Assembly (NCBI GenBank): GCA_963922205.1
Contig: CAWUHX010000029.1
Coordinates: 930,001-994,000 of the forward strand
DNA: 64,000 nucleotides
Source of the DNA: Romanomermis culicivorax
Lineage: Eukaryota; Nematoda; Enoplea; Mermithida; Mermithidae
Direction: 5' to 3'
Part shown: one piece after another, positions 4,729-55,272 of the stretch
Numbering within the stretch: the first letter of the stretch is position 1
Layout: every line of letters begins with the position of its first letter
Made by a program: the position numbers and the translations under genes
Notes under the pieces: model-generated
Told to the model about the DNA's origin: nothing
Databases searched by the model: none
What the model saw: only the letters and a program-made list of their open reading frames with translations

Positions 4729-5384
4729 CTGATAAGGATAACGTCATTCATTAGCCGACGTTATTGAAAAAAATTTCGTGCAACATGTCTGGGGCACAAG
4801 AATTTGTACTTCAATGGAACTTTACTGCAACGACCAGAAAAGCTCGTGAGGGCGAGTCAGCAATTTGGTTCGATCCGATTGGAAGGCTTCGGGTTGAGGG
4901 ACTTAACTGGACATCAAGTTCAGAACAATGGGACACCGAGGCATATATTTTATTGGAGGTAGATGAAAAACGCACAGAGATGGGTCACTTTAAAAAACGA
5001 ATAAAAGTATCAATCTTCTCAGCTCTTCGCACCATAAGAAAAGATTTTTTGACCAGTTTTGTAAAATCATCTTTCCAACTTATGAAGCGATCACTGATTC
5101 TCTTGCGTCCAAGCTCCGCTACATGTGTGCAATTACAAGAGATAAAACACCAGTAACAATCAAGCAGTGTGTGGAACGACTGCTTGTTTTAGCGGCATAC
5201 ACATTAGCGCAGCCGCTAATTTGATTTAATTTGCATTAATTAGCCTCAGTGCGAATATTTTTATAAGAGGCTCAGCTTAATAAGCGCCGCGGTGAACAAC
5301 CAGTTTATAGAACAGAACTCACTAATCTCAACTAATCAGTGCTTTATTGCTGTGCAAAACGATCGAAAAACTTTTGAACGCGGG
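4729..5384. other. Upstream of RpS20; no exon located
   Basis: This should contain the first RpS20 intron and possibly its short first exon. I could not pick one with confidence. The plus-strand frame at 4764-5156 has no recognisable domain. Confidence 0.4.
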
Positions 5385-25843: not shown

Positions 25844-27960
25844 CTGAGTAGGGTTTTTTTTGACCTATGACGACCTAAAATTTTACAAGCCATTCCAAAT
25901 TTTTACAAGCCAATTTTATAATATCAGTATATGTGAATAAATTCCATTGCTAAGTTATTTTTTAAAGAAATGTATATATTGAGCATCATGGCAATCGATC
26001 AAAAAAGAGATGTCATTCAACATTTATTCAATAACATTTTAGAGCCGTTGATTCATTAAAATTCAGGAAACATTTGGAATTTTTGAGTTTGATCGAAGTC
26101 GAATCTACAAGCATTGTGGATCAAATTTTCCAGCAAACTATCCAAGAACATAATGACTTTGAATTACATGAGAAATCGGTGGTTAAGTTCTCTCTGATCA
26201 CAAGTGAGAGCCCAAAAAAGCTATTAATCTTTCCTGCCTGAAACGCCAGAAAATTTTTTTGGGTATTGACATTCTACGATGCTGGCAATTACATTTTCCA
26301 AACACTTATTTGAAGAATTAGATTCGAATTTTCTGTTCAAAAGTCGTAATTTCTAGAATTTTATGTTTGAAAAATTTTAAAACCATTAATTTATTCACAC
26401 ACGCTCATGAACTTGACCAAAAAGATATGAGTAAGAAGAGTAGAAATTTCCGAAAACAACTTCCGCGAAGCTTTTGAATTGATTTCACGTTAAGGAAGGA
26501 ATAATCCCTTCAAAAAGTTTACAGACTTGGCGTATTGATCTTTCTCAAAAAATGTGTCAAGCGAAAAATGTGAATCTTCATTAAATATCAAGATGAAATA
26601 TTGAAGATTACCAATTAAAACATGAGATAATACGTTTAAGATGATTAAAACTATTAAAGATTAAATGATAAGTGAATGTAGACATGTTAGAAGCGGCGCT
26701 TGAGCTAGGAAATAAATAATAATGCTTATTTAAGTTATAACGGGCGCGAAGCGCCGGAAAATGTTGAGACTATGACCTAAAATGCACCAGAATGCATCTT
26801 TTCTGTATCCGATATGATCAAACACATGACTCAAAAAATTCTGAAAAGCCATTTTGGCTTGTTGGACTAAAATTCTACAAGCCATTTTGTCAGTCCAACA
26901 AGCCATGGCTTGTAAAATGCTAAAAAAACTATGGAGCTAGGTAATTACATACTAATGATTATTAAAATTATAGTTGGCACAAAGCACCAGAAAATTATGA
27001 GATTATGACCTTCTAAAATGCACCATAATGCATCTTTTGTGTATAGGATCACCAAAATTTTCTTGCCCAAATAGAGAAAGAGCCCGTAATTTTTTCCCCT
27101 TTTCTAAATTTTTTTCCCCAAAAACACGATTTGGGGAAGAAACAGTGCCTGTTACAACACAATAAAAGTGAATATAGGAAACAAGAAAATTAAATGTGTA
27201 ATTCAATCTTAAATTTGAATGAATTTATAGCTTTTTGACAAGACATTTCAAAGTCTTAAAATAAGAAAAATAATTGATTTCGAAAGTTCAGAATCAATGA
27301 CTGACACATTATAGAAGAATATTCGTGATCAAGCACAAGACTCAAAAAATTCTGCACCAGTGCAGAAATCACCAAAAAAATTCTACACAAAGCCTAAAAA
27401 GTCTGCACAGTGCAGAAAAAACACTGGATCAAAGTAACCCACACTATGGGAGACTTTGATCACCATAGTAACGTGATATCCCTAGAGAACAAAACAATTT
27501 GGCGAGGAATGGTATTGACATGAGGTTTACAATCATTGATAACTGACTGATCACATTGTTGAGCAAAAAACTGTTTTTTTCGATGAACAAAAATATATTG
27601 GTATTACTGCAGCTGGTGCACACTACCCCACTGTTTTTTTTTCCCCCGGGCCTTTTCCCCAAATGGGGAAAGGGGTCAAAATTTTTTTCCTCATTTTCCC
27701 GAAGTCGTTTTTTCGCTTAAAAATGCTCACAGACGCTTTATTTAGGTGTTTTTGAGCCTTTTAAAGCCTTCTGGTGTTTTCAGACCCGTTAATTCATTAA
27801 AATTGAGGAAAAATTGAAATTTTCGAGTTCAAAGTTTGATCTACAAGCATTGGAACAAACTTTCAAGCAAACTATCCAAAAGCATAATGACTTTGAATTA
27901 CATGAGAAATCGATGGTTAAGTCCTCTATGATGACAAGTGTTTAAGTCCTCTATGATGAC
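25844..27960. repeat. Mosaic repeat R, several diverged copies
   Basis: AT-rich repeats share phrases with 29271-29836 and 31825-31946: GGCGCGAAGCGCCGGAAAA (26743 on), AAAATGCACCATAATGCATC (about 27015), and GAGAAAGAGCCC followed by CCCC/TTTT stretches ending at AACAGTG. At 27590-27720 another copy lies in reverse, with GGTGCACACTACCCC. No coding region. This family is the substrate for several later insertions. Confidence 0.6.
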
Positions 27961-31948: not shown

Positions 31949-31957
31949 CTACCCTAT
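31949..31957. repeat. MULE target-site duplication, left copy
   Basis: CTACCCTAT, identical to 41734-41742. Nine base pairs is the standard target duplication length for Mutator-like elements. Confidence 0.95.
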
Positions 31958-32050
31958 GGCTGTGGCTATACAGACTGCAGTCTGTATATCCGCCTGACTA
32001 TACAGACTGCAGTCTGTATAGACAGGCGACTATACAGACTGTGTTTTGCT
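31958..32050. repeat. MULE left terminal inverted repeat
   Basis: It starts GGCTGTGGC and contains two copies of a 22-bp perfect palindrome (31967-31988 and 31999-32020; core ACAGACTGCAGTCTGT) plus a half site at 32031-32040. Such repeated palindromes are likely transposase binding sites. Confidence 0.93.
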
Positions 32051-32741
32051 TTTCGCTCGATACAGTAAACTGTAACAACAAATGAAAAAAGCTATCAACC
32101 TGCGAACAAAGTATGAAATTGACACAACTGCATCATTGGTTAGGTGTATCAGGGCGGCCACAGTGAACACTATTTACGAGATGAACATTTATAAGATCTT
32201 TGTTATCAAATTTTAAAAATAAAAATTCCCCTATTGCTGACATTGGCTTCAATATGCGTTTATAACGATTCAAGCACATTGGATACAACTATATGATTCG
32301 AAAACAACATCCGTCTAGAAATGAACGAGAGATAATATTTCGATGACTGAACGAGTATATTGCTTGATCATCATTAATGATTATATTAATAAAGAATTGT
32401 TGCAACTTGCCAAAATTAAAAAATATGCATGCCTTGACAGTTCACAAAAAGATTGCACATAGGTTTCTTTACACTGCTTTACGATCTGTTGGCTTTGCTA
32501 TGAACATTGTGAAATATGCATTCTTTCCTTTTCAGTCTGAAACCAATGAGTGTTTGAGTTACGAAGAAATGCTACCCTGAAATTCAATTTTTAATCATCC
32601 AGCTCTTTAGATTCTGAGATGTGTGCATCATTTCACACAGAATATTCAGTGTGTATACATAACCAATTGGTATTGGAAAAGAAATTGAACTACTGACATC
32701 GGTGTTGATGATGATCGATTTTTAAACAACCTTTATTGCAG

Positions 32742-35700
32742 ATTGTTAATCATGCGGATCTTAACGCCTTATGAACAATGGCTGCTGACTAATGGCAGTC
32801 TTTTATTCCGATCAACTGGCCCGAATCCGATTTTGTCACACTTTTATCTTTGCAATATAAAAATTAATGAATTTGAATATTCGAGCGTTGAACAAGCATA
32901 CCAATTTTTCAAAGTGAAAAACATTTTCAAAGACGACGAAAATGGAAAAAGTATGAACCACATTTTGAAATCATGTCTAACAACCTGTTGCTTTTTTCTT
33001 ACGCGTTTCTTGATCTTTGTCTTCTGGGCATCAAGTCGCAACTTTCTTATAGTCTTCATAAAACTAGGAAAAGGCTATAACCATGTGACAAGATAATTTG
33101 ACTTTCCACATATTAGGACCAGTGTTGCCAAGTTAGGGGTTTTTCCTCAAATCTAGGGGTTTTTCGAGGGCGTTGAGGTTTTTCAACGAATTGGCTTGTT
33201 TGAATTTTGTGTGCTTGATGAAGAATTACTGTATAAAAAAAGCGTGATGAAATTGAAAAAATGAAACCTGAAATGAATATTGATTGAATAGTGTGGCCAG
33301 TTTGTGTAATTTACAATTGAATTAGCATGTTTTTTACTTAATTACCGAATTTTGGCTTTTGGTGCAGCATGTTTTCTCAAAAGTTTTTTTTGATCACATA
33401 TATTCTTCTATAATGTGTCAGTCATTGATTCTAAACCTTTAAAATCAATTATTTTCCGTATTTTAAGATTTTAAAATGTCTAGTAAAAAAACTATAAATT
33501 CGTTCAAATTTAACATTGAATTGCTCATTTAATTTGCTTTTTCACTTGTAGCAGGCAGTGTTCTACCCCCAAATCGTTCTTTTTTTGGAAAAAAATTTAG
33601 AAAAGGAAAAAAAATTTGGGCTCTTCCCCCATCTGTGGAAGAAAATTTTGGGGACATGATACACAAAAAATGCATTTTAATGAATTTTAGAAGGTCATAA
33701 TTGCAAAATTTTCTGGCGATTTTGTGATTGAAAATGTGAATCGTCTTACGATTCTTAAAATAAAACGTCCAGAACCGGCTATTATACAGATCAAAAATTA
33801 CATCACAACTCCATTCAAAATAACCTGATTTTCCCAGGTTTCCCAGATGCTGAAAAAACCTGGAATCCCTGCCCTGTGTTGATAACTTAGCCTAAGGTAG
33901 CAAAAACTTGAAAAAAAGATCGAACTATGTCAAAACATTTGTTGGAGATTTTTTACAGAAATACTGTCCACAAGTTATCCCCATGAACAAAAGAGCATAG
34001 GAAGTTGTGTCCAGTCCAAGGACCACTTATTACGATTGAAATGGGATAGAATTAAAGAATTGATAATTTTTGCTCTGGACAAAGAAAAGGTATGACCTTC
34101 ATGTTGAAAGTAGATATGCAAAGCTAAAATATTTTTTTAGGATCGTCAAATGCCTAATATCAAGCAATTATTCGACATTTACCCGGATCAAAAAATTTAC
34201 GAATTCGTCAGATGTTCTTTTTGGGGCATTGGTACTGTCTACTAGTTCAAAACAGGTTATCTGAGAACTTCAATCTTACACTGCAGACTATATTTACAAA
34301 TGAAAAATATATTATTCCTCAAAATCACATTATTGAGTAGCTTTAGGTGCAGATCACTATTGTTGTGGAAATATTCAAAGATGCATTTTTGTATCATCAC
34401 AGTGATCCGAGAATTTACATTTTCATATTTTTCTATTCTAAAACGGTGAAAAATGAATTTGCAGAACAATTATCCTTGGATAGAAGTTCTGAGTTTATGC
34501 TTCTTTTGATTTTTTTGTCGATTTTCATTGGGAGCGACTGTCAACTAATAAAAATAGATGAGACAATTCAATGGAATTAATGACTAAGTGAAAGTAGATA
34601 TGATGAAGGATGCATGCGTTTGACAAAAAAATGACTGTTATACTCACAACAAGTGCGAAGCACCAAAAAACTTCCACATTTTTTGAGATCTACAGTTTCC
34701 CAAAAAGCATCTTTCCGGTTTTGAACTCCTAAAGAATTTTCCACAATAAAAACGAGTGTGAAGTGTGCTTGATATTGTTTTGTGAATTAAAGTTTTGTAT
34801 TTTATAGAATACTAAATGATGCTTAGCAGTATAATGAATAGCTTTCTACGAAATTGAGAGTGTTGCTAATATCTTCAATTTTCGACTAGTCAAATCTTTG
34901 GTTGTACTTCTCAGATATCATGTTCTTGAAAAATCTACCCAATTTCCCTACACGGATCCTTTGAAAAATGCTATTCCAGGAAATAAAGGTATGGGTGGTG
35001 AAAACAAATCGGGCAAAATATGGGAGCGCATACGCTCAGGCGCGTTTCCAGAAGTTATAGCCTTAAGCGACAAAACCCTCGAAAACATCATCATACCACA
35101 GACGGAAAGTTACGTTATTCCCGAAGCCGATTTTTCCTTCATTTCAGCTGTGGCCAAACTCATAAAATTTTTACCGTCAAGAGGAATCATTATCCATGCT
35201 GGAGCCAATGATTTATATGATGAGACTGGTTCATTTCGCTCAGTCAATCTGGTATGGCAGTTGAAAACTCAAAATGTCCTAATAAAAATTTCATGGTTTA
35301 GCTGAAACGGTAAACAAGCATGCAATATAGCACAGCAAATTTTTCAGTTAGCTCGCCGAATGCTGAATACAGCTACATTTATAGCTGAAAACAACCCGGA
35401 TGTTTTCGTCCTTATGTCGCCCATATTGCCTAGAAATATTTGTACGAAATACAATAAGTAAGGTTGCAGAAAATAATCAGTAAGTGCACTGAGGTAATTT
35501 CAAGTCTACATTAATTTTTTACATGAATAATATGAAAAACCAGAAAAATACAGTAGGTACACAGTATATGATGCTAAATATTGATGTTAAACCTTTTTCA
35601 ACATTTTATATCTCCAATTTGCTTGAGATCACCTAATCTTTTGGATGAATTTACCCAAAAACTTTATAGTTTCTACACTCAGTCTCCTAGTCTAATCCAA

Positions 35701-35985
35701 AATGAAAAACATAGCGATTCCATCCTATATTTATTTTATTATTGAAGAAAAATAAGAAAGATAGCCGAAATAGTCAAAGCAAAGAAATGTGGATTAGCCG
35801 GTTGGATTTACCTTCTTGATGTATTTGATATTTTCTGGGATGGATTCCACGCACATCGAAATTTGTTTGAAACTGATGGATTGCATTTGAGCCATGCTGG
35901 AAAGATGAAATTTTCCGAATTGATGTATGAAGCTGTTACCTCTTTGATTTCCAATACGATGCAATCATGTAAATTTTTGGTGTAG
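32742..35985 (+). CDS. NADAR domain fused to SGNH hydrolase, six exons, MULE cargo
   Basis: Exons 32742-32950, 33959-34089, 34141-34231, 34890-35251, 35348-35457 and 35748-35985 join in phase with GT/AG ends. From the ATG at 32752 they give about 376 residues. NADAR part (about 18-190): LFRSTGPNPILSHFY, SSVEQAYQFFKVK, KILSTSYPHEQKSIG, KWDRIKEL, CSFWGI and GGENKSGKIWERIR, the usual NADAR block order. SGNH part (about 195-370): candidate Ser block VIALSDKT, GAND in IIIHAGANDLY, and DGLHLSHAGK with Asp and His. NADAR proteins act on ADP-ribosyl or N-glycosidic bonds; SGNH enzymes are esterases or lipases. The substrate is unknown. The third intron is the weakest join. A splice acceptor just before the first exon suggests an upstream 5' exon. 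Confidence 0.8.
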
Positions 35986-36017
35986 CTCTCTGAAGCTTTG
36001 ATTGAAAAGTGCTGAAT

Positions 36018-36023
36018 AATAAA
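36018..36023 (+). terminator. Poly(A) signal of cargo gene
   Basis: AATAAA 33 bases after the TAG stop (35983-35985) of the NADAR-SGNH gene. Confidence 0.55.
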
Positions 36024-37029
36024 AGTAGCCTGCAGGTCCTAAAATGAAGAAAAAAGATAAAAACGTTTTAGAAAAACGCAAATTCTTACCTCATAAACAC
36101 TTACTCTTTGTACTTCCAATATTTCAACTCGATTTTTAACATTAAATAAAAAGATTTAAAATAGACGCAGAATATGCATTACATGAGAACATGAAATACA
36201 ACAGTAATAATAAAGATGACACTGACAACAAAAAATTTCACACAAGAACATTATCATCAGCTAAGCAGCATTGTTAAAAGCTGACTGAAAATGTTCCATC
36301 GAAATTTTTTATTTTGCTTTGGTCAGCAATCTTGAAAGCACAAAGATAGACAAACGAATGGCTACTGGAACTTTTGACGTATTAAAATGATCCATAATAA
36401 AATAATTACAAAAAATATTGCGCGGGCAAAAAGAATAATTTTTTACAAACTTATAACAGGTAGAAATGACACAAATTAACACATTTGAACTGAAAAATGA
36501 GATAATGAAGATGAAAATGATTTAAAGCACAACCGGATATTCTGAAACTACAATTTACAGATTAAAAATCCAAATTAGGAACAACGGAGTTTCACAATAA
36601 TTGAAAGGATCGAAGTCGAAAATGAAAATTTCACAACACAATCAAAATATTCACTTACTCAATTAAAAAATCAAAACTACGAGTTGAGGAATTTTTGTGA
36701 AGTTCAAAATTAGGATGAAAATTTGTGAAAATAAACAATTTTCAACACCAGAATCTGTGCTGCAATAATAATTTTAAAAACGCCTCAGCAGAAGACTCTT
36801 TACACTGCTACTGAGGAAACGATTATATATAAATCAATTTGCTTAATAAAAACTAACTCTCTTCACTATTCAATGATAAGAGCACTAATCACTGAAATGA
36901 TATCGACAATCAAGTGCCCCTACTACCGAAGATTTGGGTTCATGCTGCACAAAGATGCCGAACATCATAATCAGGATTTATGCAATTACATTTGATTTCA
37001 GTGCAATGATTCATGTGCAAAGAAAGCAT
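36024..37029. other. Non-coding spacer between convergent MULE genes
   Basis: AT-rich. I see no coding frame or repeat. Both MULE genes end into this stretch. Confidence 0.5.
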
Positions 37030-40000
37030 TTACGATATGACTTCAGAGCGCAAAAATATAAGCAACTCAATTTGAGTGTGACTAATTTCGGTTGGGGAAA
37101 TTTTGTCATGTTGCAAACCATCATATTTGAAGAATTGTCTACCAAATTTGAATGTACTAGAAAAATGATCAGGAGAATGGTTGACAGCGCCAATCAGTTC
37201 GTAATCAAGACCAAAAAATTTCAAAGTTTGTGGATATTTCTTGCTTAAGCAGTACACATCACTGGCAGGCAGCAATAGAAATTCAGGGTGGTTCCCAGTG
37301 AGTCCACAATTTTTGAAGGATCTTATACCAGTGCTGCAAATGCTGCATTCGGTGAAATAATTGCTACTCCATTGATCCATGAGTTCCTGTAAATCAATAT
37401 TGTGATCTAGGTTCAAAAACCGGTAAAAATTTATTCCATGATTATTTTCCAAGATAATTTGCTTTCTGCAATTTTTCAAATCACACTTGCTATTTATCGT
37501 AGTCTCACAATTATTATCAAAATGTGAAATGAACCTGTCATGCAAACTCCCATGGAAATCGTAGGTACAAATACCGTTCACATATTTTGAGTGATTTAAT
37601 TTTATAAATTCTGCCCAGACCCCTTTGGATGCAGCAAAGTTATTACTACGGGCTAATGATAAAACGTTTCTGAAGCATTTCACTGCCGTATTGTTACTGC
37701 GTAAAAATGTCTTTTCTAATTTTCCTCCTGTTTCCCAATTTCTGGCATGGAATGGCATGAAACATGAATCGATGGGACATGTGTTTACAAAGCAGATTCT
37801 GCCATAACCACCGAAATTATATAAATTACTGCCATCAGGAATGCACTGAAAGTCATGAGGCAAACTTACATCAAGAATCGATAGTTTAGATTTCTTTTTC
37901 GGAGATTCGTCACGTTTGAAATCATCCTCACAAAATTTGTAGGTCCAAGGAACATTGGTCTGATTCCAAGCTGGTTCTCTTGGTGATGGCACACTTTTAC
38001 AGCATTCGAAATGATACCACTCTTCACACTGAGAACATTCTATCATTTTCAATAGACCATTATCCGGTTGTCTACAAGAACAATAAATCTTAACACTACT
38101 AGTTTGTAGGGCCGAAATTTTTGTGATCTTACGAGATGCATTATAACAAGAAAATGAGTTGTCATCGAAACATTTTAGGGTGTGATTCACAATAGAAGCA
38201 CCTTTCAGGTAACATTTTTTGCTGGGGTCTCTACCATTACAAAGATCAACAGCACAGGCAATCGAAATAAGAACTTGTTCCCGCTGATTACTTGAGAAAG
38301 TAATTGGCCACAAACTCAAACGTAAAGCTGTTCCAGAATTTTTAGGCAGAGAAATCATGAATGCAATCTGACTGTAGAGGTCATTATAGTCCTCATTTTT
38401 AGTTTCAGACGAACACAAATTGATTTCTTTGGAGGAATAAATATGCACAATTCCATTACCGAGATGATTAATAGTGATAAAAGTATCTAAAAATTTGAGA
38501 ATTTGAATGAAAGAACCTTCTCGTTTCTTTAATAAACCAAGCGGACCTAAACCAGGATTCTGGGGATAATCTTTTTTGAAGGATATTGAGATAAGCTTTG
38601 CAGCTTTAGCTACAACGCTGTCACTGAGGACTTCAGCATTCTTTATTTCTTCGATTTCTTTATCTGTCAGTCTTATAGGCAGAACTTTCTTTTTTGGAAT
38701 AGATCTTTGAGGCGCAGTTAACCCACTTACATTACCTACTATTTTCCGTTTTCGACGAAAACTAATATTTTTGAGAAGATTACTGTTATTAATTGTACGA
38801 TTATCCTCACTATCGGATGCCATAGCACTTGCAGAGGTAACTGAACGAGAATCGAGAGGAGGGACCAAGATTTCTCTTGAGAAAACACTTTCGTTTTTAT
38901 ATCTTCCAAGTTCTTCATTTGGATTGGCTTTACAGTTGAAATAAATTGGGGTTGATGATCTATTATCAGATTTCAATATATTCTCATTTGTGCTACAAAT
39001 ATTTATGGTCTGATGGAAATCAGTTTGTTTTGCAACCATAGATGTAGTTCCTGATATCAAGTTTGCATTTGTTATCCTGCCCAAACTGTCAAAAATAATT
39101 TTGTCGGCTGAAATTTCGTCACACATATTTTGAAGAAATAGAACAAAATTCTGATACTTTTCCAGACTGGCTTTGGACATATCATCGCAAATTTTTCTTG
39201 CCTTTGAAAATTTTTCTTGAACACAAAGGACCTTTTGGGGTTTCGAAATGTTCAAAGCAGGCTCCACTATACTTTTTGAAACTAAAAGAGGCTGTGAAGT
39301 ATTTTTTTGAAGCTCACAATGTGCTGCTGAGAATAGAGGTTTTTTCAGATCCGGTGGAATTGATCGCAAGTTGATTAAAGCAAGATTACTGTGACTTCTA
39401 ACAGCAAATATATGTTTACAAGGCAAATCAAAATTACAATAAGCTTTACACGTGCAGACGTTTAAATTTGACTTGTCAAAAACTCGCGTTGATAGGCCAG
39501 GGAATCTGACTGAAACATTAGATTCCTGTTCAGCAATTTCGGTTTGATTTTTGTATTTACAGAATAATTTGTACTGAGAAACCAACTGATTTGTGCCAAA
39601 ATCGGTGAAGTTATTTCTGAAAAAAACAACATTTTCATCATTTTCTAGAAAAGAATCTTTGATTTTGCATTTGGCTAAAAAGTTTCTATAATTCACGTGA
39701 TATGCATGGATGGAGCAAAATTTTATCAATTCTTTGACACAAGTTAGCATATCTGAGTATTTTTGCACAACACTTTTGATAAGCATATTCTCGGCTTCTA
39801 CACGATTGGTATCATTTGTGTTGGAATTTTTGATATTTTTTCGGAAAACTGTAGCCCACATAGTCCTACACTGATACCAGTTAGCCTCAAAAGAATCTTT
39901 GAATGACAAAGGAATAGTGTCATCATTAGCGAACGTATGCCATTCATCTTCAAACACAAGTTCGTCATGGGTAAATAGAAAAGTTCGAAGCATTTTCCTT

Positions 40001-40329
40001 ACTTTTTCTCTAACTTGATCTTGACTAATGCGTTTAGAAAAAAGAACCTGCAATTCTTCCATTGAAAACTTCATACTTTTAATCAAAGCATCAAAATTTC
40101 TCTGAGTATGGACTTGGCACAAAAGGACAGAGGCATTGTGGAATGTATCATGAGCAAATTTAACAGATTGAAAATCTTTGTCGAGCAAGACCACGCCCGT
40201 TTTTTCCACAGCTTCCACATTAGATAATTTGAAATGATCAAAACACATTTTTATGTGATCGTCAGTTTCTTGTGCCAAGAACGCCCATGATACAATGCGT
40301 GTTTTGCCATTATTGTCAACAACATACAA
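37030..40329 (-). pseudogene. MULE transposase, catalytic core to C-terminus (1099 aa)
   Basis: The frame holds the second catalytic Asp in VVLLDKDF (about residue 50), a CxxH pair in LLCQVHTQRNF (71-74) and the catalytic Glu in NRVEAEN (about 178). A SWIM zinc finger follows in CTCKAYCNFDLPCKH (292-306). Residues about 555-720 resemble a Ulp1/C48 protease-like domain, but the expected His-Trp and Asp-Cys-Gly positions are replaced. A PHD finger follows (750-803; IYCSCRQ, IECSQCEEWYHFECC). The last ~250 residues look like a ubiquitin-hydrolase (USP) fold, with NTCPIDSCF and NHSPDHF, YDGL near the end. The first Asp (VDGTY) is in another frame just upstream, so the gene is broken near 40340-40375. 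Domain names come from motif reading. Confidence 0.85.
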
Positions 40330-41435
40330 CGAAAAGATAGCAGGTGTACCCGCAATTGTTCAGGCGATAGGTTCCATCAACCTCCAGAAGATGTGGAAAA
40401 CTGCTACACCATTGAGACATAACAGTGTTAAGGAAAAATATCATTTCGATAACACCAGATATTTCATATGTTATTACCTTGACATATGCACCAGGATCAA
40501 GATTTTTTTGTTCTTCTAAATATTCAACGACTTTTCTCGGAATGGATTTCTCTGTATCTATATTTTTTCTAGCCACAAAATTTGCTATATCCTTCGAACT
40601 AACATATTTACCATGATTTTTGCGGATGCTTTCTGCTAGAAGTTTTCTATTGGGCTGAATATCATTTGTATCGAGAACAAAGTTACCTAAGTCACCAGTA
40701 AGTTTGCGCTGTTCAGGATAAAAATAAAGTTTCTTCGGAAGGTACATGATTTTCATGAATAAAATTCGCGGCAGTAACGCGCAAGCATTTTTTCTTTTTG
40801 CTGAACGAAATTTTGATCTCACTTCCACAACCCAAGCCAAAATAACTTTGCTTAGGACGTTGACCTTTACTAGTTACTTGCCTTCTTATGCCGTTCTTAC
40901 AATCAAAATGGCAGTACGTATAAACGAATGGGGAATTTTCGTCCGGAAATTTGATACTTTTTCGAATAGAAAATTGCTGGAAAGTAGAATTTTGGAGTTC
41001 GATTAGCTTGTGATGAAACTGTTCGAAAGTTTTAAAACAGTCACCAACTTGCATGAATCCTGACGAAGATTTGGTGAAATCTGACTTCGGAATCACATTT
41101 TTATCGGGGGGAAGTGGATTGGAAGGAGCTCTGAAGTCATCTTCGTCGAAATTGGAAGGAAGATGTTCATCTACCATGATGCTTCCACGAGCAGCAGTAA
41201 AATTCAGCTCACAAGATCTGTGGCTGCACAGATCCGCGGAAAAACGATACAATAAAACAAAAGCGTAACAAAGAAAATCACGATAATTATACGACCACAA
41301 AGGCAACACACGATGGAAATCCAAAAAACCCAAAATACCCAAAAACACACGATAGAAATAGAATATCCAAGATACCCAACCCGCAAGATTATATTTACAC
41401 AGTAAAAAAGCTCTATGATCATATCGACAATTCAA
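40316..41435 (-). pseudogene. MULE transposase N-terminal part, two frames
   Basis: Frame 41435-40713 encodes an N-terminal region with Ser/Pro-rich sequence and a Cys/His-containing block (YCHFDCKNG, YFGLGCGSE, HENHVPSEE), like DNA-binding domains found at the start of MULE transposases. The frame changes near 40725, and 40840-40316 continues with YFYPEQRKLTGDL to LLEVDGTYRL, which contains the first catalytic Asp. A second frame change leads into the 1099-residue frame. A small intron around 40400-40480 is conceivable (GTAATAAC donor on the minus strand), but I could not make its phases agree. Confidence 0.7.
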
Positions 41436-41640
41436 TAATAACCAACACTACAGACTTGCAAACATTATACAGAGGAAGATCTCAAATCAACAGGAACTTT
41501 TCTTGAGCATCACGTAGTGTGATGGAGACGAGTGTCCCACCTGCATTTGCATTCATGTTAGTTATCTTCAAATGAGCGCAGGTTACACAATTCACTGAAT
41601 TAACTCAACGGTCTACTGTATGTACATGGATATACATATT

Positions 41641-41733
41641 AGCAAAACACAGTCTGTATAGTCGCTTGTCTATACAGACTGCAGTCTGTATAGTCAGGCG
41701 GATATACAGACTGCAGTCTGTATAGCCACAGCC
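41641..41733. repeat. MULE right terminal inverted repeat
   Basis: Reverse complement of 31958-32050 with a single mismatch (GACAGGCG against GACAAGCG). It has the same two palindromes and half site. Confidence 0.93.
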
Positions 41734-41742
41734 CTACCCTAT
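41734..41742. repeat. MULE target-site duplication, right copy
   Basis: CTACCCTAT. It also forms bases 3-11 of the foldback tip CACTACCCTATAGCGTTAT. Confidence 0.95.
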
Positions 41743-44700
41743 AGCGTTATGAGTGTATATACAGTATATTCGTCGGATTGTCGACTACTAAAGCAAGAGG
41801 ATCAACTTGCTCATCGATTCTCAAAATAGCCATAAAGAGCTAAAAACGCGTCAAACGGCAGGGACACCACCTTGGGAGGCTTGGGCACGACCACACGACC
41901 CGCGGGAGGTCAAGGAGTAAGACGTCGCACAATTTATTGCAAATTTGTACTGTTTTTTGGAATCTTTTCAACAATTTGATAAAAATTGTGACTACTAAAA
42001 TGAGCGTTTTGTGCGGCACATTGTGACGGGCCAGGCCACATGCCCGGCGGGAGGTCAAGGGGTAAGGCGCCGCACATATTCTTGCAAATTGCGCTGTTCC
42101 TTGGAATTTTTTCAACAATTTGATTAAAATATTGACTACTAAAATGAGCGTTAAGTGCGACACATTGTGAGGGGCCAGGCCACATGCCCCTCGGGAGGTC
42201 AAGGGGTTAGGCGCCACACACATTCTTGCAAAATTTTTATTTTTTATATGTTTTTTTCTTAGAAATTCTTGTTTTTTTGTTTTCTATATTTGTTTTTTCT
42301 TCTTCTTTTTTCGCGTTTTTTTAGTTAATTTTTTTAGTTATGTGGAGTTCATTAGCGTTTTTATCAGCTTTTCCCATATATTTTAGCTAGCTATAATTTT
42401 AGAATTTCTAGGTACTTTGGAGTTCAACAGTTGTCATTATTAATTATGTATATTTTATATTTTCTTCGAGAATATTTGGAATTTTAGTTATAGAGTTTGA
42501 AGGGGGCAACCTTTCTTCTACTTTTATTCTTCAAACTCTATAACTAAAATTCCAAATATTCTCGAAGAAAATATAAACTATACATAATTAATAATGACAA
42601 CTGTTGAACTCCAAAGTAGCTAGAAATTCTAAAATTATAGCTAGCTAAAATATATGGGAAAAGCTGATAAAAACGCTAATGAACTCTACAGTTATTGTAT
42701 TGTTTTTCTCGGTTTTATGTGTTTTCTTCCAAATTCTTCTATTCTTTTGCTAGCTGTCTGTTTTTACTCATTTACTCATCTTTTTCTTTTTCTTTTTTTG
42801 TTTTTTTGTTAAGCATTAGTTTTTAGTTTTAAAAATCGCGATTTCTGTATTTGTATTTCTTTTTTTTCCTTTTTGTTATTTCTTCATTTTTACTTATTTC
42901 TAGTTTTTTTATCTGTTTTTTCTCCAGTTTTTTATTGAATATTTAGTTATTTTTTGTTTATTCATTTTAATTTATCTTTTTTCAGTTTATGAATTTTTGT
43001 CGAGTTGTTTTTTGATTACTTTTTTTTACTTTTTCGTATGTATTTATTTTTTCAGTTTTAAATATTTTCTTTCAAATTTTTGTCTTTTGCTGGCTGTCTG
43101 TTTTTATTCATTTTTTAAAATTTTTCTTTTGTTTTTTTCAGTTTGTTGATTTATTTTTTCAGGTTTTGATTTTAATTGAAAATTGTATTTCTCTGTTTTT
43201 GTCTTTTATTGATTTTGTTTTTGTCAAGTTTTTTTCATTTTTTGATTTATTTTTTTGCTTTTGTCTTTTTTGTCGGTTTAAATATGGTTTTTGTTGTCAA
43301 GTTTTTTGTTTTTTATTGAAAAATTATAGTTCAAGATGTCACACAATTATGTAATTTTTGGGAAAACACACGGCAAGCTGGCCATTGAACATTCGACGTA
43401 AAATTCGACGTTGACCCAAAGTTAAATCTGAAAATTGAAATTTATTCGACCACTAGAAGAAAAAAATTGAAATTAAAAAAAATTAAAAATGAAAAAAAAA
43501 TTTTCAACAAAAAATTTTTTTTTAATTCAAGAAAATAAAAACAGAAAACAAATACAAACGGAAAGCAAATGCAGCACAAAAACCATAAAATTGATAACAA
43601 TGCACAATTTTTCAGAAAAAAAATTTCAGAAAACTAAAAACGTAGAAATAAACTACAAAAAAACGAAAAAAACAGATTAAAAAATTACGAAAAAACATTT
43701 TTTGATGTAAAATAAACCACAAAAACAAATAAAATCCAAAAAACCAAAAATTCTATCATGAACTCTAATTTTGCATAGAAAAAAACAAAAAATCAACAAA
43801 AAAGAGAACAAAAAATAAAACACAAAAAACAAAAAAATTTAATCATAAACTATAATTTTCAAGCCAAAGCACTAAAAAACTTGACAAAAGAACAATAAAA
43901 AACACAAACAAGAATAAATAAGAAAAAATTTAAAAAAAGCGAAAACACACCAAAAATGTCAGCATAAACTAAAATTTTTTTTTGAAAAAACAAAAACACT
44001 GAAAAAATAAAAACAAAAGAAACAAAAAATGATCATAAACTATAATTTTCACACAAAACATGATAGAAGTTAACAAAAAAACAACAAAATAGAAAAACGG
44101 AAGAAAAGCAAACAAAAAGAATAAAAAATAAAATCTGCAATTTTTTCTGGAGAAAAACATAGCAAATAAAAATCAGAAAGCAAGTAAAACAAAAAACAGA
44201 AAGCAAGTGAAGCACAAAAAAACAAAAATGTCAGCATAGACTATCATTTTTTATTGAAAAAACGAAAACAGTTGAAAAAATAAAACACAAATAAAGAAAA
44301 AAACAAAAAAATAAAAAGAAAAAAATGAGTAAATGAGTAAAAACAGACAGCTAGCAAAAGAATAGAAGAATTTGGAAGAAAACACATAAAACCGAGAAAA
44401 AAACAAAAAATACAATAACTAAAAAAATTAAATAAAAAACACGAAAAAATAAGAAAAAACAAATATAAAAAACCAAAAAAACAAGAAAATAAAAGAAAAA
44501 ACATATGAAAAATAAAAATGTTGCAGGAATATGTGCAGCGCCTTACTCCTTGAACTCCCGCGGGGCATGTGGCCTGGTCCCTCACAATGTGTCGCAGTTA
44601 ATGCTCATTTTAGTAGTCAATATTATAATCAAATTGTTGAAAGATTCCAATAAACAGCGCAATTGGCAAGAATATGTACGGCGCCTTACCCCTTGACCTC

Positions 44701-48411: not shown

Positions 48412-48819
48412 TGTAGTATAATCAAATTTTTTGTTTATTCCAAACTTTATTTGTTCTAGCCTATTTTTTGTTTTTCTTTCTCCTGTATCGCATTTCCAAT
48501 ATCTGTACGTCTGTTTGGCTTCTGTTTCATTTTCTGTTGTTCTTGCTCATTTTTTAGACCACCCAATGCACTTTTTTTCGCGACGTTTTTCGGCCAACTG
48601 TTCTTTGTATGAGTTTTCACTGTTGTCTTGAAAACGTTTATTTTTCTGTTGGTAGAGAATCGTTATTGTTGTTTTTCGTAGCCCACTGGTGAGGCGTCTT
48701 TTCTTTCCCTTTTTGTTCTTAATAATAAATCAGGCGCCAACCTACAGTAGCTCGGTGGACTTTGTCCAAAGCAGAACCCGGTCCCTTTATCTCCTACTAT
48801 CCATAGGCAAACCATTACA
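48412..48819 (+). repeat. 5' LTR, 408 bp
   Basis: It starts TGTAGTATAATC and ends AAACCATTACA. AATAAA at 48724-48729 is a poly(A) signal. It differs from the 3' LTR at three sites (TATCTGTACG, CGCGACGTT and TTTGTATGAG here). Confidence 0.95.
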
Positions 48820-48837
48820 TGGTGCATTAGCCGGGAA
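48820..48837 (+). other. Primer binding site, tRNA-Gly-like
   Basis: TGGTGCATTAGCCGGGAA follows the 5' LTR directly and is complementary, with about one mismatch, to the 3' end of a tRNA-Gly (ending AATGCACCA). tRNA identity is inferred from general knowledge of tRNA 3' ends. Confidence 0.65.
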
Positions 48838-48996
48838 AAACAAGGAAGACAGACAGTAGGAGTCGCCAATGGTCAGACAAGGAGGAGGAGTTGCGAGTCT
48901 AGTCTCAAAAGAAAAAAAATATATACTGGTCACTTAATTTGTTTTTGTCAAAATATTGGTCGAATTTATTGTTGCGTTCCTTTTCAATTTTCGGAC

Positions 48997-51900
48997 ATGG
49001 ATGCATCGAATATCGGTAAGAAACCAAATTTTGTTACTGTTAATATTAATGATATTATAAACGCGCCATCTGACTCGCCCTGGTTTAAACAACTTGATAA
49101 TAAGTATGGCGTGAAAGTTGATCCAGCTGACAAAGAGGCGTTAACAGCAGCATTACAAAATTATGTTGTTGAAAGCTTGAAAAGGTCTAAGAAAAGGTAT
49201 AAGAATAAAGACACCTTTATGTTCAAGTTGCCCGTTTCTGATGAAGAGTGTGCTGTAATGAATGATGCTAGTAGTGTTCCAAAACAATTTTTTGGTCCTA
49301 CTGATAAAACTGATCCAAACTTATCGGAGTCAGAAGATGAAGAGTCCACTAGTGCACATGTAAAAGCAACTAATCATCCTTTCACTCATAAAAATCTGAA
49401 CACTGAACTTGCGTCTACGAAACACTTCGAGGAAATGATAACTGAATTAAAGGTAAGTAGTGCTGAACTGAAGCAGATCTTTAGTTCTCACTTTGTTGAG
49501 CTGGCTCAGTTAAAAGACGTTTTCTACAATTTTAAATCTGCCATGGAACTCGACATCGAATTTGTTCTATCTGATGAGTTCAATAAAATTCGTTTCGAAA
49601 AATCTCAAACTTTCTCTGATTTGAAACAAAATTTTGAATCACGTGTGAAAGAAACGCAAGGTTCTATTGATCGTCTCGATAATGTGTGTAGGGATTTGTT
49701 CTCGAAAATTGATGGTCTCGTTTCGACTTTGTATTCTGCTGTCGATTCGAACAGATCGGAGATCAAGAAAATTCAGTCGCAACTTTGTCAGAAGAATCTC
49801 GATTCAGTTGATGATGATGATGTTAAAAACATTTCTGGGGCTTCTCAAGCAAATCTTGAGACTCCCAAGCACAATTCTCATACTAAACAGTTCGAGTTCG
49901 ATTCGCCAAATAAAACGAATTTGTCACATACTGATAAAGATAATTTCAAGGTTCCGCGTCAATTCAAGTGTTGTAATGGTTCTTCCCCTGAAGAATTTCT
50001 CGAATGGTTGGCCAAACTCGAATGTACAGCTCATATTTCAGACTGGTCTGATGAGTATAAATGTTGGCTTGTAGTTAACTTAACTGAAGGTCGTGCAGCA
50101 TCCATTCTTGATTCTATGGAGTTAGATTGTCGGAAAGATTGGACAAAACTTAAACAGGAGCTGGTTCAAAAACTAGTTCGATCTCAGCATTTTGACAGGC
50201 TCAAAAATGAGTTGCGTCAAAGAGGTCAAAAGGTTGATGAAAGCATTCTAGATTTTTCGAAAGATTTCAGAGAAAAAGCTAGAAATGCTTATATAAACAA
50301 AAAACCTGGTTTTGACGAATCCGAATTGGTTAATTTGTACATCGAAGCTCTGTGTGATGAAAATCTACGCCTAGAACTGTTCAAACAGAAATGCGCGACC
50401 TTGGATGAAGCAATTAACTTTGCTGAAAACGAAATTTCGCTCCGTCAGTTAGCTAAACTCCGAAACTCGCGTTTATCTTCTACGAAAAGTTTTGAGGGTA
50501 TTGGTAAAACTAGTTCGCCTAAGAAAGATTTCGAATCCAGGCAAAATATTCCATTTGGTGCCCGTAAACCTAACCATAATCAATCTTTTTCATTCCAAAA
50601 TCCTGATCTTTTCCAACAAAATTCTAAAAATTTTCATGGCCCTACATCGTCCGATTCCAAATGTTTTGGGTGTAATCAGCCAGGCCACTATAAAAAAGAC
50701 TGTCCAAATATTAGTCAGTCGCGTCCGTCTGTTTGTTTCAATTGTAATGGCGAAGGGCATAGAGCTTATCAGTGTCCGTCTGCAAGAGTAAGAGCACCTG
50801 GACAAAATCCTGGAACTTCTCATGCTACAAATTCGAGACCTACGACAAATTCTAATTCTAATGGTACTTATCGAGCAAATCACCGATTTTCCTCTGCTTT
50901 TGGTGTTATTGCTGAACAAACTTCAGCTGTGAAACATGCTAATACAAAGTTACATGCTAATATCTATGTTCATGTTGGTGAAAGCAGAACTGGATGCTAC
51001 ACCCTTGTAGACAATGGGAGCTTGTGCAACATTATCCATTTAGATTTTCTCCAGCTTTTACAAGATAAAGGCGAGAAATTTGTTTATAAGTCGACCAATA
51101 TCATGAGTATTAAGAGTTTATCAGCAGAACCTATTACAGTTCTGAGTGAAGTTTTCACTGCAATCACATTGGGCAAAGGTCATAATTCGTTCACTTTCAA
51201 AACGTCATTCCTACTTGTTGAAACCCTGCCTTACAAAATTTTGCTGGGTGCAGAGGCCATGTCAGATGGTAACATATTTGTCGATATTCCTCAACGGTTG
51301 GTGCGAGTAATTTGTCGGAATAGTCGCAAAATTCAAATTCCTTTTGTATCTAAAGAGTATTCCTCATCTTTTGCCTGTTCTATAACTTGTGAAAGTACTG
51401 TAGTCGTTCCACCGAGTGCAATAGTCTACGCTTATGGCCTAGCTGATGAAAGAGTAGATGGTGTCACTGGTTTAATGGAAAGCATTTCAAAATTTTCAAC
51501 AAAAGACGACTTCTGTGGCGCGAATTCATTTGTGGAAGTCAGGAATGGACGCATTCCTGTCATGTTTGTGAATTTCGGAGGTAACACGTTGTTGGGTGAA
51601 AAGGGTACAGTGGTAGGAACGTTATTTCCACTGGACCAGGAAAGTGTTGTCGCCCGAGCTAGTTGTTTTGCCGGCTTAGCCAATGTTGTGGCACAAGTAA
51701 GTGGGTCGCTCCCAGATAAGGAACAGGGTGTTCCAGTGTGTTCTTCACAGTGCACAGTGAATGAACATTGCAGACAGGGTTCGTCGAGTCAGACGCCTGT
51801 GGAAGCCAGTGGGACTGGTAAGCAGATTCTGGTGGAGGGTTGTCAGGATGACCCAGTATTTTGCGAAATACTATCTTCCTCCACTGGAATAGATTCAGTT

Positions 51901-53511
51901 TTGAATGAAGTTGATAAAAATGAGCTCATGGCGTTTTTGAAGCAGAATTCTGATCTGTTTACAGAAGTAACAGGTAGAATTGGTCGTACCAATGTTGTGA
52001 AACACAATATTGATACAGGTAACTCGAGTCCATCTGTGCAACTGATGAGGAGAATTCCAGAAGCACAGAAGGTGATAATCGATGAAGAAGTGGAGAATAT
52101 GTTAAACACAGGTGTTGTTCAGAGCTCATGTAGTCCGTACAGAGCTAATTTCGTTTTGGTTCAGAAGAAGGATATCACATGGAGGCCATGCATTGATTTT
52201 CGAATGCTAAATTCCATAACCAAGAAAGATGTCTATCCTCTTCCCGGAATTGATGAGACTCTGGATGCGTTGGGAACTGCAAAACTTTTCTCGACTCTAG
52301 ACTTGTCTCATGGATACTGGCAAGTAGAACTGGAGGAAGAAAGTAAAGAAAAGACTTCATTCGCCACCAGAAAAGGTCTTTTCAAATTCACAGTGATGCC
52401 ATTTGGATTATGCAATGCACCATCGACTTTTCAAAGACTCATGGATGTCGTTTTAGGTCGCCATTGCTGGAACTTTTGTCTGGTGTACTTGGATGATATC
52501 ATCATTTATTCCAAGTCATTTGCAGAACATTTGGCACACTTGAAACAAGTGTTCGACCGTTTGAGAGAAGCAGGGTTGACACTCAAAGCGAAGAAGTGTC
52601 TTTTTTGTAGAAAATCGGTACCCTTTTTAGGTCACATAATATCACCTGAGGGGATAAAACCCGATCTGGCTAAAATCGAATGTATTCAGAATTGGCCCAT
52701 ACCACAGAACAAAGAGGAGCTGTCCTCTTTTTTAGGTTTTGTACAATATTATCGTCGTTTCATCCGCAACTTTTCGCAGAAAGCAGCAGCCTTGATGGAT
52801 TTACGTAAAAGTAGTCATGCTTTCGTTTGGACTGATGCGTGCACTGATGTCTTTAACAAACTTAAAGCTGAGGCACTTAATTATCCTACTTTACGTTACC
52901 CTGATTTCACAAATCGATTTATAGTCTATACTGATGCGTGTGACAGAGGCATCAGAGCTGTTCTGGCGCAACAAGACAATAATTGTGAATGGGCCGTAGC
53001 TTATGCAAGTAGGATGCTTTCTGATTCAGAGAGAAAGTTACATATAAACGAAAAAGAAATGCTTGCTGTGTTTTGGGCGATTACCAATGTTTTTCGTCCC
53101 TATGTTTTTGGTCGCGAGTTTGATCTTGTGACAGATAGTTCAGCTGTCACAGCTTTGAAAAAATATAAGGGTAATAACGGCAAGATTCTGAGATGGCAAC
53201 AAGAATTAGGTACTTATCAATTCGTTCTTTATCACCATAAAGGTTATGCAAATTTGAATGCAGATGGCCTCTCAAGACGCCCGGATATTGCTGATAACTT
53301 TGGCAATATGAACTTAAATGACGAACCATTAACATATAGTGATTTTCAGTGTCAAAAACAATCTTTTTGCGCTCAAATTGTAGGATCACAATCTTCAGAA
53401 CAAACTTCTGGGATGATGCCACTTGAAATTACTTTCTCCAATGCAGCAAATGTTGCTTCTTATGTAATTGATAGGTTAGATCTTAATAAATTCGAGTCTG
53501 ACTGGCCTTAA
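48997..53511 (+). CDS. Gag-Pol of LTR element: gag, protease, RT, RNase H (1504 aa)
   Basis: Gag occupies roughly residues 1-600, with a helical capsid-like part (about 330-480) and two CCHC zinc knuckles (CFGCNQPGHYKKDC near 556, CFNCNGEGHRAYQC near 579). The protease active site near 670 reads LVDNGS, with Asn where Thr or Ser is usual. RT motifs include LFSTLDLSHGYWQ, FKFTVMPFGLCNAPSTFQR and YLDDIIIYSKS (near 1163). RNase H has YTDACDRG, NEKEMLAV, VTDSSAV and ADGLSR. Gag and pol share one frame. The frame ends at TAA 53509-53511, and the same frame continues into the integrase ORF 45 bases later. This is either a nonsense mutation or a natural readthrough point. Confidence 0.93.
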   Translation: MDASNIGKKPNFVTVNINDIINAPSDSPWFKQLDNKYGVKVDPADKEALTAALQNYVVESLKRSKKRYKNKDTFMFKLPVSDEECAVMNDASSVPKQFFGPTDKTDPNLSESEDEESTSAHVKATNHPFTHKNLNTELASTKHFEEMITELKVSSAELKQIFSSHFVELAQLKDVFYNFKSAMELDIEFVLSDEFNKIRFEKSQTFSDLKQNFESRVKETQGSIDRLDNVCRDLFSKIDGLVSTLYSAVDSNRSEIKKIQSQLCQKNLDSVDDDDVKNISGASQANLETPKHNSHTKQFEFDSPNKTNLSHTDKDNFKVPRQFKCCNGSSPEEFLEWLAKLECTAHISDWSDEYKCWLVVNLTEGRAASILDSMELDCRKDWTKLKQELVQKLVRSQHFDRLKNELRQRGQKVDESILDFSKDFREKARNAYINKKPGFDESELVNLYIEALCDENLRLELFKQKCATLDEAINFAENEISLRQLAKLRNSRLSSTKSFEGIGKTSSPKKDFESRQNIPFGARKPNHNQSFSFQNPDLFQQNSKNFHGPTSSDSKCFGCNQPGHYKKDCPNISQSRPSVCFNCNGEGHRAYQCPSARVRAPGQNPGTSHATNSRPTTNSNSNGTYRANHRFSSAFGVIAEQTSAVKHANTKLHANIYVHVGESRTGCYTLVDNGSLCNIIHLDFLQLLQDKGEKFVYKSTNIMSIKSLSAEPITVLSEVFTAITLGKGHNSFTFKTSFLLVETLPYKILLGAEAMSDGNIFVDIPQRLVRVICRNSRKIQIPFVSKEYSSSFACSITCESTVVVPPSAIVYAYGLADERVDGVTGLMESISKFSTKDDFCGANSFVEVRNGRIPVMFVNFGGNTLLGEKGTVVGTLFPLDQESVVARASCFAGLANVVAQVSGSLPDKEQGVPVCSSQCTVNEHCRQGSSSQTPVEASGTGKQILVEGCQDDPVFCEILSSSTGIDSVLNEVDKNELMAFLKQNSDLFTEVTGRIGRTNVVKHNIDTGNSSPSVQLMRRIPEAQKVIIDEEVENMLNTGVVQSSCSPYRANFVLVQKKDITWRPCIDFRMLNSITKKDVYPLPGIDETLDALGTAKLFSTLDLSHGYWQVELEEESKEKTSFATRKGLFKFTVMPFGLCNAPSTFQRLMDVVLGRHCWNFCLVYLDDIIIYSKSFAEHLAHLKQVFDRLREAGLTLKAKKCLFCRKSVPFLGHIISPEGIKPDLAKIECIQNWPIPQNKEELSSFLGFVQYYRRFIRNFSQKAAALMDLRKSSHAFVWTDACTDVFNKLKAEALNYPTLRYPDFTNRFIVYTDACDRGIRAVLAQQDNNCEWAVAYASRMLSDSERKLHINEKEMLAVFWAITNVFRPYVFGREFDLVTDSSAVTALKKYKGNNGKILRWQQELGTYQFVLYHHKGYANLNADGLSRRPDIADNFGNMNLNDEPLTYSDFQCQKQSFCAQIVGSQSSEQTSGMMPLEITFSNAANVASYVIDRLDLNKFESDWP

Positions 53512-53556
53512 AATTGGGGCCTGGATCAATGGAATGATCCGTTTTGTAAACCAATC

Positions 53557-55206: not shown

Positions 55207-55272
55207 AATCACTGTTATTTTTCTAAGTGCAAACAGACTTTGAAGTCTGAAATTTACTAGTTTTTTTTCGAG

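What the first reader, a model, noticed from the sequence alone, without database searches (positions are those of the whole stretch)
32742..35985. A MULE transposon carries a NADAR-SGNH fusion gene
Six exons with consistent phases encode NADAR-type blocks followed by SGNH-type blocks, inside an element whose borders are fixed by 93-bp ends and a 9-bp duplication. NADAR proteins have been linked to removal of ADP-ribose from DNA or to related N-glycosidase chemistry. A transposon-borne copy could counter a host ADP-ribosylation response or process modified nucleotides, with the SGNH part acting on an ester. The domain calls are motif reading; the role is inference.
Basis: partly seen in the sequence, partly recalled or inferred. 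Interest (0 to 1): 0.88.

Follow-up and report, generated by a model that had tools for sequence, protein, structure and literature searches.

The report
NADAR-SGNH gene carried by MULE transposons
A jumping gene in an unnamed eukaryote's genome, probably an animal's, carries beside its own transposase a spliced gene for a protein related to enzymes that remove ADP-ribose, and at least one distantly related jumping gene in the same genome carries a version of it too, so it may be a standing accessory of these elements rather than a chance passenger.

Summary
A 9,776-bp MULE (93-bp TIRs, one mismatch; exact 9-bp TSD) carries a six-exon gene with a NADAR domain (44.3 bits, cutoff 35.1) and an SGNH-like domain (26.4 bits, below cutoff). 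The genome holds seven copies; in four of the other six, homology starts exactly at the TIR. A second MULE family (transposase 38% identical, own TIRs, 9-bp TSDs) carries a homologue with the same place, orientation and first three intron phases. Genome-wide, 13 of 39 transposase loci have a related exon-4-like match within 12 kb, all 3' (9 convergent; 0.27 expected).

Against the proposed chemistry: the SGNH serine and oxyanion glycine are replaced in six of six readable copies, YbiA's D130 position is Cys in seven of seven, and coding changes among copies look neutral (53 of 76 nonsynonymous, 53.9 expected). 85 of 98 related loci have no transposase found nearby. NADAR also sits in LINE-like ORF1 frames, a separate lineage. 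Function is unproven.

The parts
31949..31957 (.). left 9-bp target site duplication CTACCCTAT
31958..32050 (+). left terminal inverted repeat, 93 bp, holding two copies of the palindrome CTATACAGACTGCAGTCTGTATA
32752..32950 (+). exon 1 of the NADAR-SGNH gene (ATG at 32752; splice acceptor ending at 32741 upstream)
33360..33722 (.). interspersed repeat inside intron 1 (78% to 26981-27359, inverted), present in the other six copies too
33959..34089 (+). exon 2
34141..34231 (+). exon 3
34980..35251 (+). exon 4 (end of NADAR and start of the SGNH-like domain; SDK where relatives have GDS)
35348..35457 (+). exon 5
35748..35985 (+). exon 6 with the DGLH motif and stop codon
37030..40359 (-). transposase, main open frame (second half of the RNase-H-like domain; SWIM and PHD matches under their cutoffs; conserved C-terminal domain)
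40316..40873 (-). transposase, middle frame (first half of the RNase-H-like domain); frame change against both neighbours
40713..41447 (-). transposase, N-terminal frame (ZSWIM3_N profile); frame change against the middle part
41641..41733 (-). right terminal inverted repeat
41734..41742 (.). right 9-bp target site duplication CTACCCTAT

Best explanation
The gene is the second, accessory gene of a lineage of MULE transposons. Its working part is most likely the NADAR domain; the SGNH-like part has lost residues of an esterase in this family and may serve as a structural or binding module. I think the most likely action is that NADAR removes ADP-ribose (or a related N-glycosidic adduct) from nucleic acid or from a small signal made by a host ADP-ribosyltransferase, for instance at the breaks made by excision or insertion, and so helps the element complete its cycle. 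Shown here: the anatomy, the seven copies, the second MULE family with the same layout, the co-location count. Inferred: that the element profits, the chemistry, the host target. Rough odds: NADAR-SGNH gene inside a MULE 0.97; standing accessory of a MULE lineage rather than one capture 0.75 (lowered from 0.8 on checking, since NADAR itself is profile-confirmed in two of the families only); ADP-ribose chemistry useful to the element 0.35.
For: TIR, TSD, exons. Profiles. Seven copies, 94-98% DNA identity; of the six besides the window's, homology starts at the first TIR base in four (C10, C63, C340, second C29) and inside the TIR in two (C198, C76). TSDs read by eye: C340 9 of 9; C10 and C258 8 of 9. 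Second family: about C386:72006-84402, 1,379-aa open transposase frame (38% over window residues 7-1088), cargo product 38.6% identical over 228 residues with intron phases 1,0,1 as here, NADAR 60.1 bits; exact 9-bp TSDs that differ between C386 (AGTGAATCC) and C226 (CCTTCGGCC), so separate insertions. 13 of 39 transposase loci have a related match within 12 kb, all 3', 9 convergent, 0.27 expected. Window NADAR keeps the positions of YbiA E48, K55, W89, E125, W133. E88 and K95 of E. coli C7 NADAR take part in guanine de-ADP-ribosylation and are largely conserved in the superfamily (PMC11543638, passages); that they are the same as YbiA E48 and K55 is my reading of the motif.
Against: No excess of silent change among the seven copies (53 of 76 nonsynonymous, 53.9 expected). 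The YbiA D130 position is Cys and the otherwise usual Gly-Arg is Gly-Ser in seven of seven copies, and one copy (second C29) has a stop at the W133 position. 26 of 39 transposase loci show no match within 12 kb, and 85 of 98 related loci no transposase. The 13 fall into about five families, copies within which are not independent; for C177, C43/C10/C59 and C69 only an exon-4-like match was seen, not NADAR. The tree does not resolve MULE 1 and MULE 2 cargo as sisters against the other genes (65/57), so separate captures from one gene family remain possible. No expression data; no assay.
Confidence: 0.42

Rival explanations
1. Passenger: MULEs captured members of a large host NADAR-SGNH gene family, perhaps more than once, introns included; the copies ride along and do nothing for the element.
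For: 107 rows match a relative's exon 4 in the genome, some loci in tandem (L080, L081, L082 on C195, C5, C365); the five relatives with exon 4 opened in L078, L080-L082 keep PGA, four of the five GDS, and most keep the acid at D130; 85 of 98 related loci have no transposase found within 12 kb, and none lay in the 4.8 kb downstream of exon 4 of the C575 gene; neutral pattern of change in family 1; MULEs tend to acquire host gene fragments (PMC6446971, abstract).
Against: Same side, same strand relation and same first three intron phases in MULE families whose transposases are 38% identical; open cargo frames in the window and C10 copies and in family 2, the latter without an SGNH end; only 42 of 277 transposase candidates were scored, so the 85 is an upper bound.
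Confidence: 0.33
2. Non-catalytic adaptor: the product binds ADP-ribosylated or other nucleic acid, or the transposase, like a dead enzyme turned binding protein, and helps targeting or anti-silencing as VANC does for VANDAL MULEs.
For: SGNH Ser and Gly replaced (Ser-Asp-Glu, Ser-Asp-Lys or Ser-Asn-Glu; Pro-Glu-Ala) and the D130 position Cys in family 1; GDSL derivatives of the bdelloid Athena-L family lack catalytic residues too (PMC5408684, passages); VANC proteins counteract silencing of VANDAL elements (abstracts of PMC10398659 and PMC5735166 in a search listing; passage in PMC6446971).
Against: Window NADAR keeps the E48, K55, W89, E125, W133 positions, more than a pure scaffold needs; no resemblance to VANC was tested.
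Confidence: 0.18
3. The element is a decayed relic and the gene model a chance join of exons.
For: The window transposase frame is broken twice; five of seven cargo copies carry a gap, a stop or lack exons.
Against: The C10 copy has one open transposase frame of 1,445 aa and an open cargo frame; NADAR profile above cutoff across four exons; the second family reproduces the first three intron phases.
Confidence: 0.04

Closest known systems
NADAR in retrotransposons: Ectocarpus Gypsy (N-terminal region of Pol) and oyster Tx1 LINE ORF1 (PMC12477816, passages read)
   Same: NADAR carried by transposable elements, role unclear
   Different: Those are class I elements; here a class II MULE with a separate spliced gene and an SGNH-like part. 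In this genome LINE-like ORF1 frames carry NADAR too, in a separate lineage (100/99, two rows)
texim SGNH gene associated with fish Helitrons (PMC4021074, passages)
   Same: an SGNH gene with introns associated with a DNA transposon
   Different: Helitron; NADAR not mentioned in the passages seen
L2-type LINE ORF1 esterase, ZfL2-1 (PMC3905857, one passage; PDB 4c1b)
   Same: second-ranked PDB match of the SGNH part and the only SGNH one among seven, not significant (E 0.55); N and D..H motifs align
   Different: Ser and oxyanion Gly absent in family 1; different element class
Bdelloid GDSL ORFs in LTR and Athena elements (PMC5408684, passages)
   Same: accessory SGNH ORF in mobile elements, catalytic residues lost in one family
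   Different: retroelements; the word NADAR does not occur in that text
Rehavkus and other animal MULEs (PMC6446971, passages and the whole of section 6 with its Table 1)
   Same: 9-bp TSD, long TIR, PHD finger reported for Rehavkus
   Different: Table 1 lists one ORF for Rehavkus and names no NADAR or SGNH in any group; a few groups have an ORF called unknown
DarT1-NADAR toxin-antitoxin (PMC11543638, PMC11125620, passages)
   Same: NADAR as remover of ADP-ribose from guanine; the conserved Glu and Lys are present here
   Different: bacterial pair with an ART toxin; no ART profile in the frames of this element that I scanned

Membership tests
MULE (Mutator-like) transposons | target site duplication of 8-11 bp, mostly 9 | tested here: met
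   range from Table 1 of PMC6446971
MULE (Mutator-like) transposons | long terminal inverted repeats | tested here: met
   93 bp
MULE (Mutator-like) transposons | MULE-type RNase-H-like transposase profile | tested here: met
   PF21056 (ZSWIM1-3 RNaseH-like) 43.1 and 34.3 bits, cutoff 27.2; PF10551 MULE itself 16.5, under its cutoff 27.6
MULE (Mutator-like) transposons | catalytic D, D, E | not tested
   motif reading only
Rehavkus subgroup | PHD finger in the transposase | tested here: inconclusive
   PF00628 21.2 bits, cutoff 24
Rehavkus subgroup | minisatellite before the 3' TIR | tested here: not met
   TRF finds only TIR-internal repeats in the window copy; the other copies were not run
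NADAR | PF08719 above the curated cutoff | tested here: met
NADAR | conserved Glu and Lys (YbiA E48, K55) and Glu E125 | tested here: met
   alignment
NADAR | acid at YbiA D130 | tested here: not met
   Cys in seven of seven copies
SGNH/GDSL hydrolase | profile above the curated cutoff | tested here: not met
   26.4 vs 32.9 bits, E 1.1e-5
SGNH/GDSL hydrolase | block I Ser and block II Gly | tested here: not met
   K or E, and E, in six of six copies readable there; most relatives opened have GDS and PGA
SGNH/GDSL hydrolase | Asn of GxND and D..H | tested here: met
   GAND and DGLH in the window copy; C340 has NGLH
Pack-MULE | gene pieces between TIRs without a transposase | tested here: not met
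   the element has transposase frames of its own

The most novel reading that the evidence does not exclude
A clade of MULEs has a conserved two-gene plan, transposase plus NADAR-SGNH, and uses de-ADP-ribosylation of nucleic acid to protect its intermediates from a host ADP-ribosylation defence; NADAR has been recruited at least twice in one genome, by LINE ORF1 and by MULEs, which would point to nucleic-acid ADP-ribosylation as a eukaryotic, probably animal, defence against transposons.
Probability: 0.2. Interest if true: 0.92.

Novelty: new variant of a known kind. Interest (0 to 1): 0.66.

Why it matters
None of the passages I saw establishes host ADP-ribosylation as a brake on transposons. 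If unrelated mobile elements in one genome keep an ADP-ribose-removing domain, that makes the question testable: look for the modification, the enzyme that makes it, and an effect of NADAR loss on transposition. It also adds a DNA-transposon case to NADAR in retrotransposons. In print: the listings (20 of 246 papers shown; 1 of 1; 15 of 15; 30 of 229; 8 of 674) showed me no NADAR in a DNA transposon; the library is open-access only and holds no Repbase.

Tried and rejected
Rejected: (1) my own first splice model with exon 4 at 34890, which put an odd insert into NADAR; other copies and relatives showed the acceptor at 34980. (2) Recent purifying selection: plain pN/pS was 0.60, but with the observed transition bias the count equals the neutral expectation. 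(3) A host gene that merely lies near a MULE: homology of four other copies starts at the TIR. (4) Esterase action in family 1: residues replaced.

Led nowhere: the 5.8-billion protein search found nothing at E <= 0.001 for the cargo, nothing at E <= 1 for its SGNH part and nothing at E <= 0.001 for the transposase; since even the transposase found nothing, the silence on the cargo means little. The PDB search with the whole first-model product gave nothing at E <= 1. Phages: 13 records with weak NADAR matches, best E 5e-3. Viral contigs none. Rfam on the window none. GDSL profile on the genome none, the exons being split. SL1 RNA search uninformative by its own control.

Limits of the counts: the 98 loci were typed; rows for other exons of the seven family 1 copies and second rows of the same place were left out, and neighbours on one strand under 900 bp merged. 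Most are matches to an exon-4-like stretch (end of NADAR, start of SGNH); NADAR itself was not checked at each. Scored candidates: transposase 42 of 277, first cargo search 109 of 150, second 141 of 141, NADAR 150 of 182, TIR 40 of 173. The 0.27 treats all loci as independent.

Recalled, from no call: that E48, W89, D130 and W133 are the residues tested in YbiA (the spacing of the SNA-3 residues in PMC9303266, agrees), and that they map on the C7 NADAR residues as I say.

Full report
WHAT IS THERE. The window holds one complete MULE-like element, 31958-41733. Its ends are 93-bp inverted repeats with one mismatch, each holding two copies of a 23-base palindrome, and it is flanked by the exact 9-bp duplication CTACCCTAT. 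On the minus strand lies a transposase: ZSWIM3_N and ZSWIM1-3 RNase-H-like profiles above their cutoffs; PHD, MULE and SWIM profiles under theirs. Its frame changes twice in this copy, between 40713-41447, 40316-40873 and 37030-40359. On the plus strand, convergent, lies the reported gene.

THE GENE. Six exons give 346 residues: NADAR at 24-160 (44.3 bits, cutoff 35.1) and an SGNH-like stretch at 208-319 (26.4 bits, cutoff 32.9; the profile's first 63 positions unmatched). NADAR keeps the positions of YbiA E48, K55, W89, E125 and W133, but D130 is Cys and the usual Gly-Arg is Gly-Ser. Residue numbers are those of the E. coli YbiA fetched; which of them matter is from PMC9303266 and PMC11543638 (passages) and partly recalled. 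In the SGNH part most relatives opened read GDS and PGA where family 1 reads SDE (SDK in the window, SNE in C340) and PEA; GAND and DGLH remain. The only SGNH structure in the PDB listing, by a match that is not significant (E 0.55, second of seven rows), is the ORF1 esterase of a zebrafish LINE (4c1b; the listing says ORF1-encoded protein, the rest is from PMC3905857, and recall).

THE GENOME. The window is G000:C29:930001-994000 in a 359-Mb assembly. The cargo gene occurs seven times: C29 (window), C10, C63, C198, C340, a second place in C29, and a partial one in C76. DNA identity is 94-98%; homology to the window begins at the first TIR base in C10, C63, C340 and the second C29 copy, and inside the TIR in C198 and C76. 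Duplications that I read by eye: C340 9 of 9, C10 8 of 9, C258 (only a piece of the cargo's first exon found) 8 of 9; C571 9 of 9 and C120 8 of 9 are elements with similar TIRs whose inside I did not read fully. Two of seven cargo copies have a whole open frame (window, C10); the second C29 copy has a stop, a 7-base gap and a lost acceptor, C63, C198 and C76 have gaps, C340 lacks exon 5 and part of exon 6, C76 exons 4-6, all within the stretches held. The C10 transposase is one open frame of 1,445 residues, so the family has at least one copy with both frames open.

A SECOND FAMILY. C386, C226 and C525 hold copies (95.9-99.8% alike) of another element. About C386:72006-84402 it has roughly 150-bp inverted repeats (96%) that begin GGCAGTGGCTA (GGCTGTGGCTA here), a 1,379-residue open transposase frame 38% identical to the window's over residues 7-1088, and exact 9-bp duplications that differ between C386 and C226; in C386 the border can be set in two ways, one base apart. 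Its NADAR-SGNH gene starts 0.66 kb inside the left end, is convergent with the transposase, and has intron phases 1, 0, 1 as the window gene has at its first three introns. As I modelled it the product has 242 residues, NADAR 60.1 bits (no GDSL profile match there), 38.6% identity to the window product over 228 residues, GDS kept, but PDA and GTHN, and no D..H found in a scan of 1.8 kb from within exon 4 on.

CO-LOCATION. 39 transposase loci against 98 related cargo loci (typed): 13 of 39 have one within 12 kb, all on the 3' side, 9 convergent and 4 on the same strand (C10 second locus, C43, C59, C69); 0.27 expected by chance. By family these are five: family 1 (five loci), family 2 (three), C177 (transposase 36% identical, convergent), C43/C10/C59 (same strand) and C69 (same strand, a weak match, E 4.1e-5). 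In the last three only an exon-4-like match was seen; NADAR was not confirmed. Against the reading: 26 of 39 have none and 85 of 98 related loci have no transposase found in that distance.

OTHER NADAR. 132 NADAR rows reach E <= 0.001 in the genome; the split exons of the window gene are not among them. Of eight loci opened (L008-L015), seven show an endonuclease-like frame downstream and five of those carry NADAR, or in L009 its beginning, in one frame with a CCHC knuckle; this is reading by eye except for L010, where Pfam gives NADAR 115.6 bits and a knuckle just under its cutoff. They look like LINE ORF1, as in oyster Tx1 (PMC12477816). In the tree (12 rows, 225 columns) MULE and tandem NADAR-SGNH genes form one clade (100/98), the two LINE rows another (100/99), and the order within NADAR-SGNH is open (65/57 for MULE 1 with MULE 2; 59/7 for the tandem genes).

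SELECTION. Against the majority of seven copies: 27.5 silent and 63.5 replacement changes, pN/pS 0.60. Counting each variant once and using the observed transition bias: 53 of 76 replacement, 53.9 expected. Exons differ by 1.82% and noncoding parts by 2.14%, gap openings 0.55 and 1.69 per kb. So recent change looks neutral or nearly so; long-term constraint is suggested only by open frames and kept residues between families.

MECHANISM. NADAR proteins remove ADP-ribose from guanine in DNA, eukaryotic members included (PMC11543638, PMC11125620, passages), and one nematode protein with three NADAR domains acts in RNA trans-splicing (PMC9303266, passages). A MULE-borne NADAR could therefore act on ADP-ribosylated nucleic acid at transposition breaks, on RNA, or on a signal nucleotide. 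I prefer the first, weakly. The SGNH part is unlikely to be an esterase in family 1.

NOVELTY. The papers listed or opened gave NADAR in Gypsy and LINE elements and SGNH in Helitrons, LINEs and bdelloid elements, but no NADAR in a DNA transposon. Repbase and subscription papers were not searched. I file it as a new variant: a MULE accessory gene of a new kind, built of two domains each known from other mobile elements.

Noticed in passing
L010 559-2055 and L008-L015: LINE-like elements of this genome carry NADAR at the C-terminal end of an ORF1 with a zinc knuckle, a lineage of NADAR separate from the MULE one; 132 NADAR rows in the genome, eight loci opened.
   Followed up: partly
window 37030-38136 (-), L083 7829-8998 (-): The transposase C-terminus after the PHD match is conserved between the two MULE families (34% over 381 residues) with a VNTCPIDSC / VDTCTIDSC block and late His residues; no Pfam family found there; by eye it recalls a cysteine protease.
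   Followed up: partly
C10:1446138-1468001: This family 1 element is about 21.9 kb; a transposase of another MULE (1452458-1455643) and an exon-4-like match (1447727-1447996) lie inside it, with matches of the same score at C43 and, for the exon-4-like part, C59.
   Followed up: partly
C571:9674-28036 and C120:478391-490620: Elements with similar TIRs, 18.4 and 12.2 kb long, with 9 of 9 and 8 of 9 matching duplications and no NADAR row inside; contents not read.
   Followed up: no
L078, L080, L081, L082 (C575, C195, C5, C365): NADAR-SGNH genes, several in tandem, mostly with canonical GDS and PGA blocks, several with stops; possible host gene family.
   Followed up: partly
window 42341-42690: Foldback: two 162-base arms, 98% complementary, 26 bases apart, just outside the MULE.
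   Followed up: no
window 48751-57319: Gypsy-type element: gag-pol frame, integrase frame directly after a stop in the same frame, then two further frames (326 and 363 aa) without any Pfam match at E <= 0.01.
   Followed up: no
window 4393-4743 (-) and 14805-15182 (-): Host genes: ribosomal protein S20 and a piece of Mcm10.
   Followed up: no
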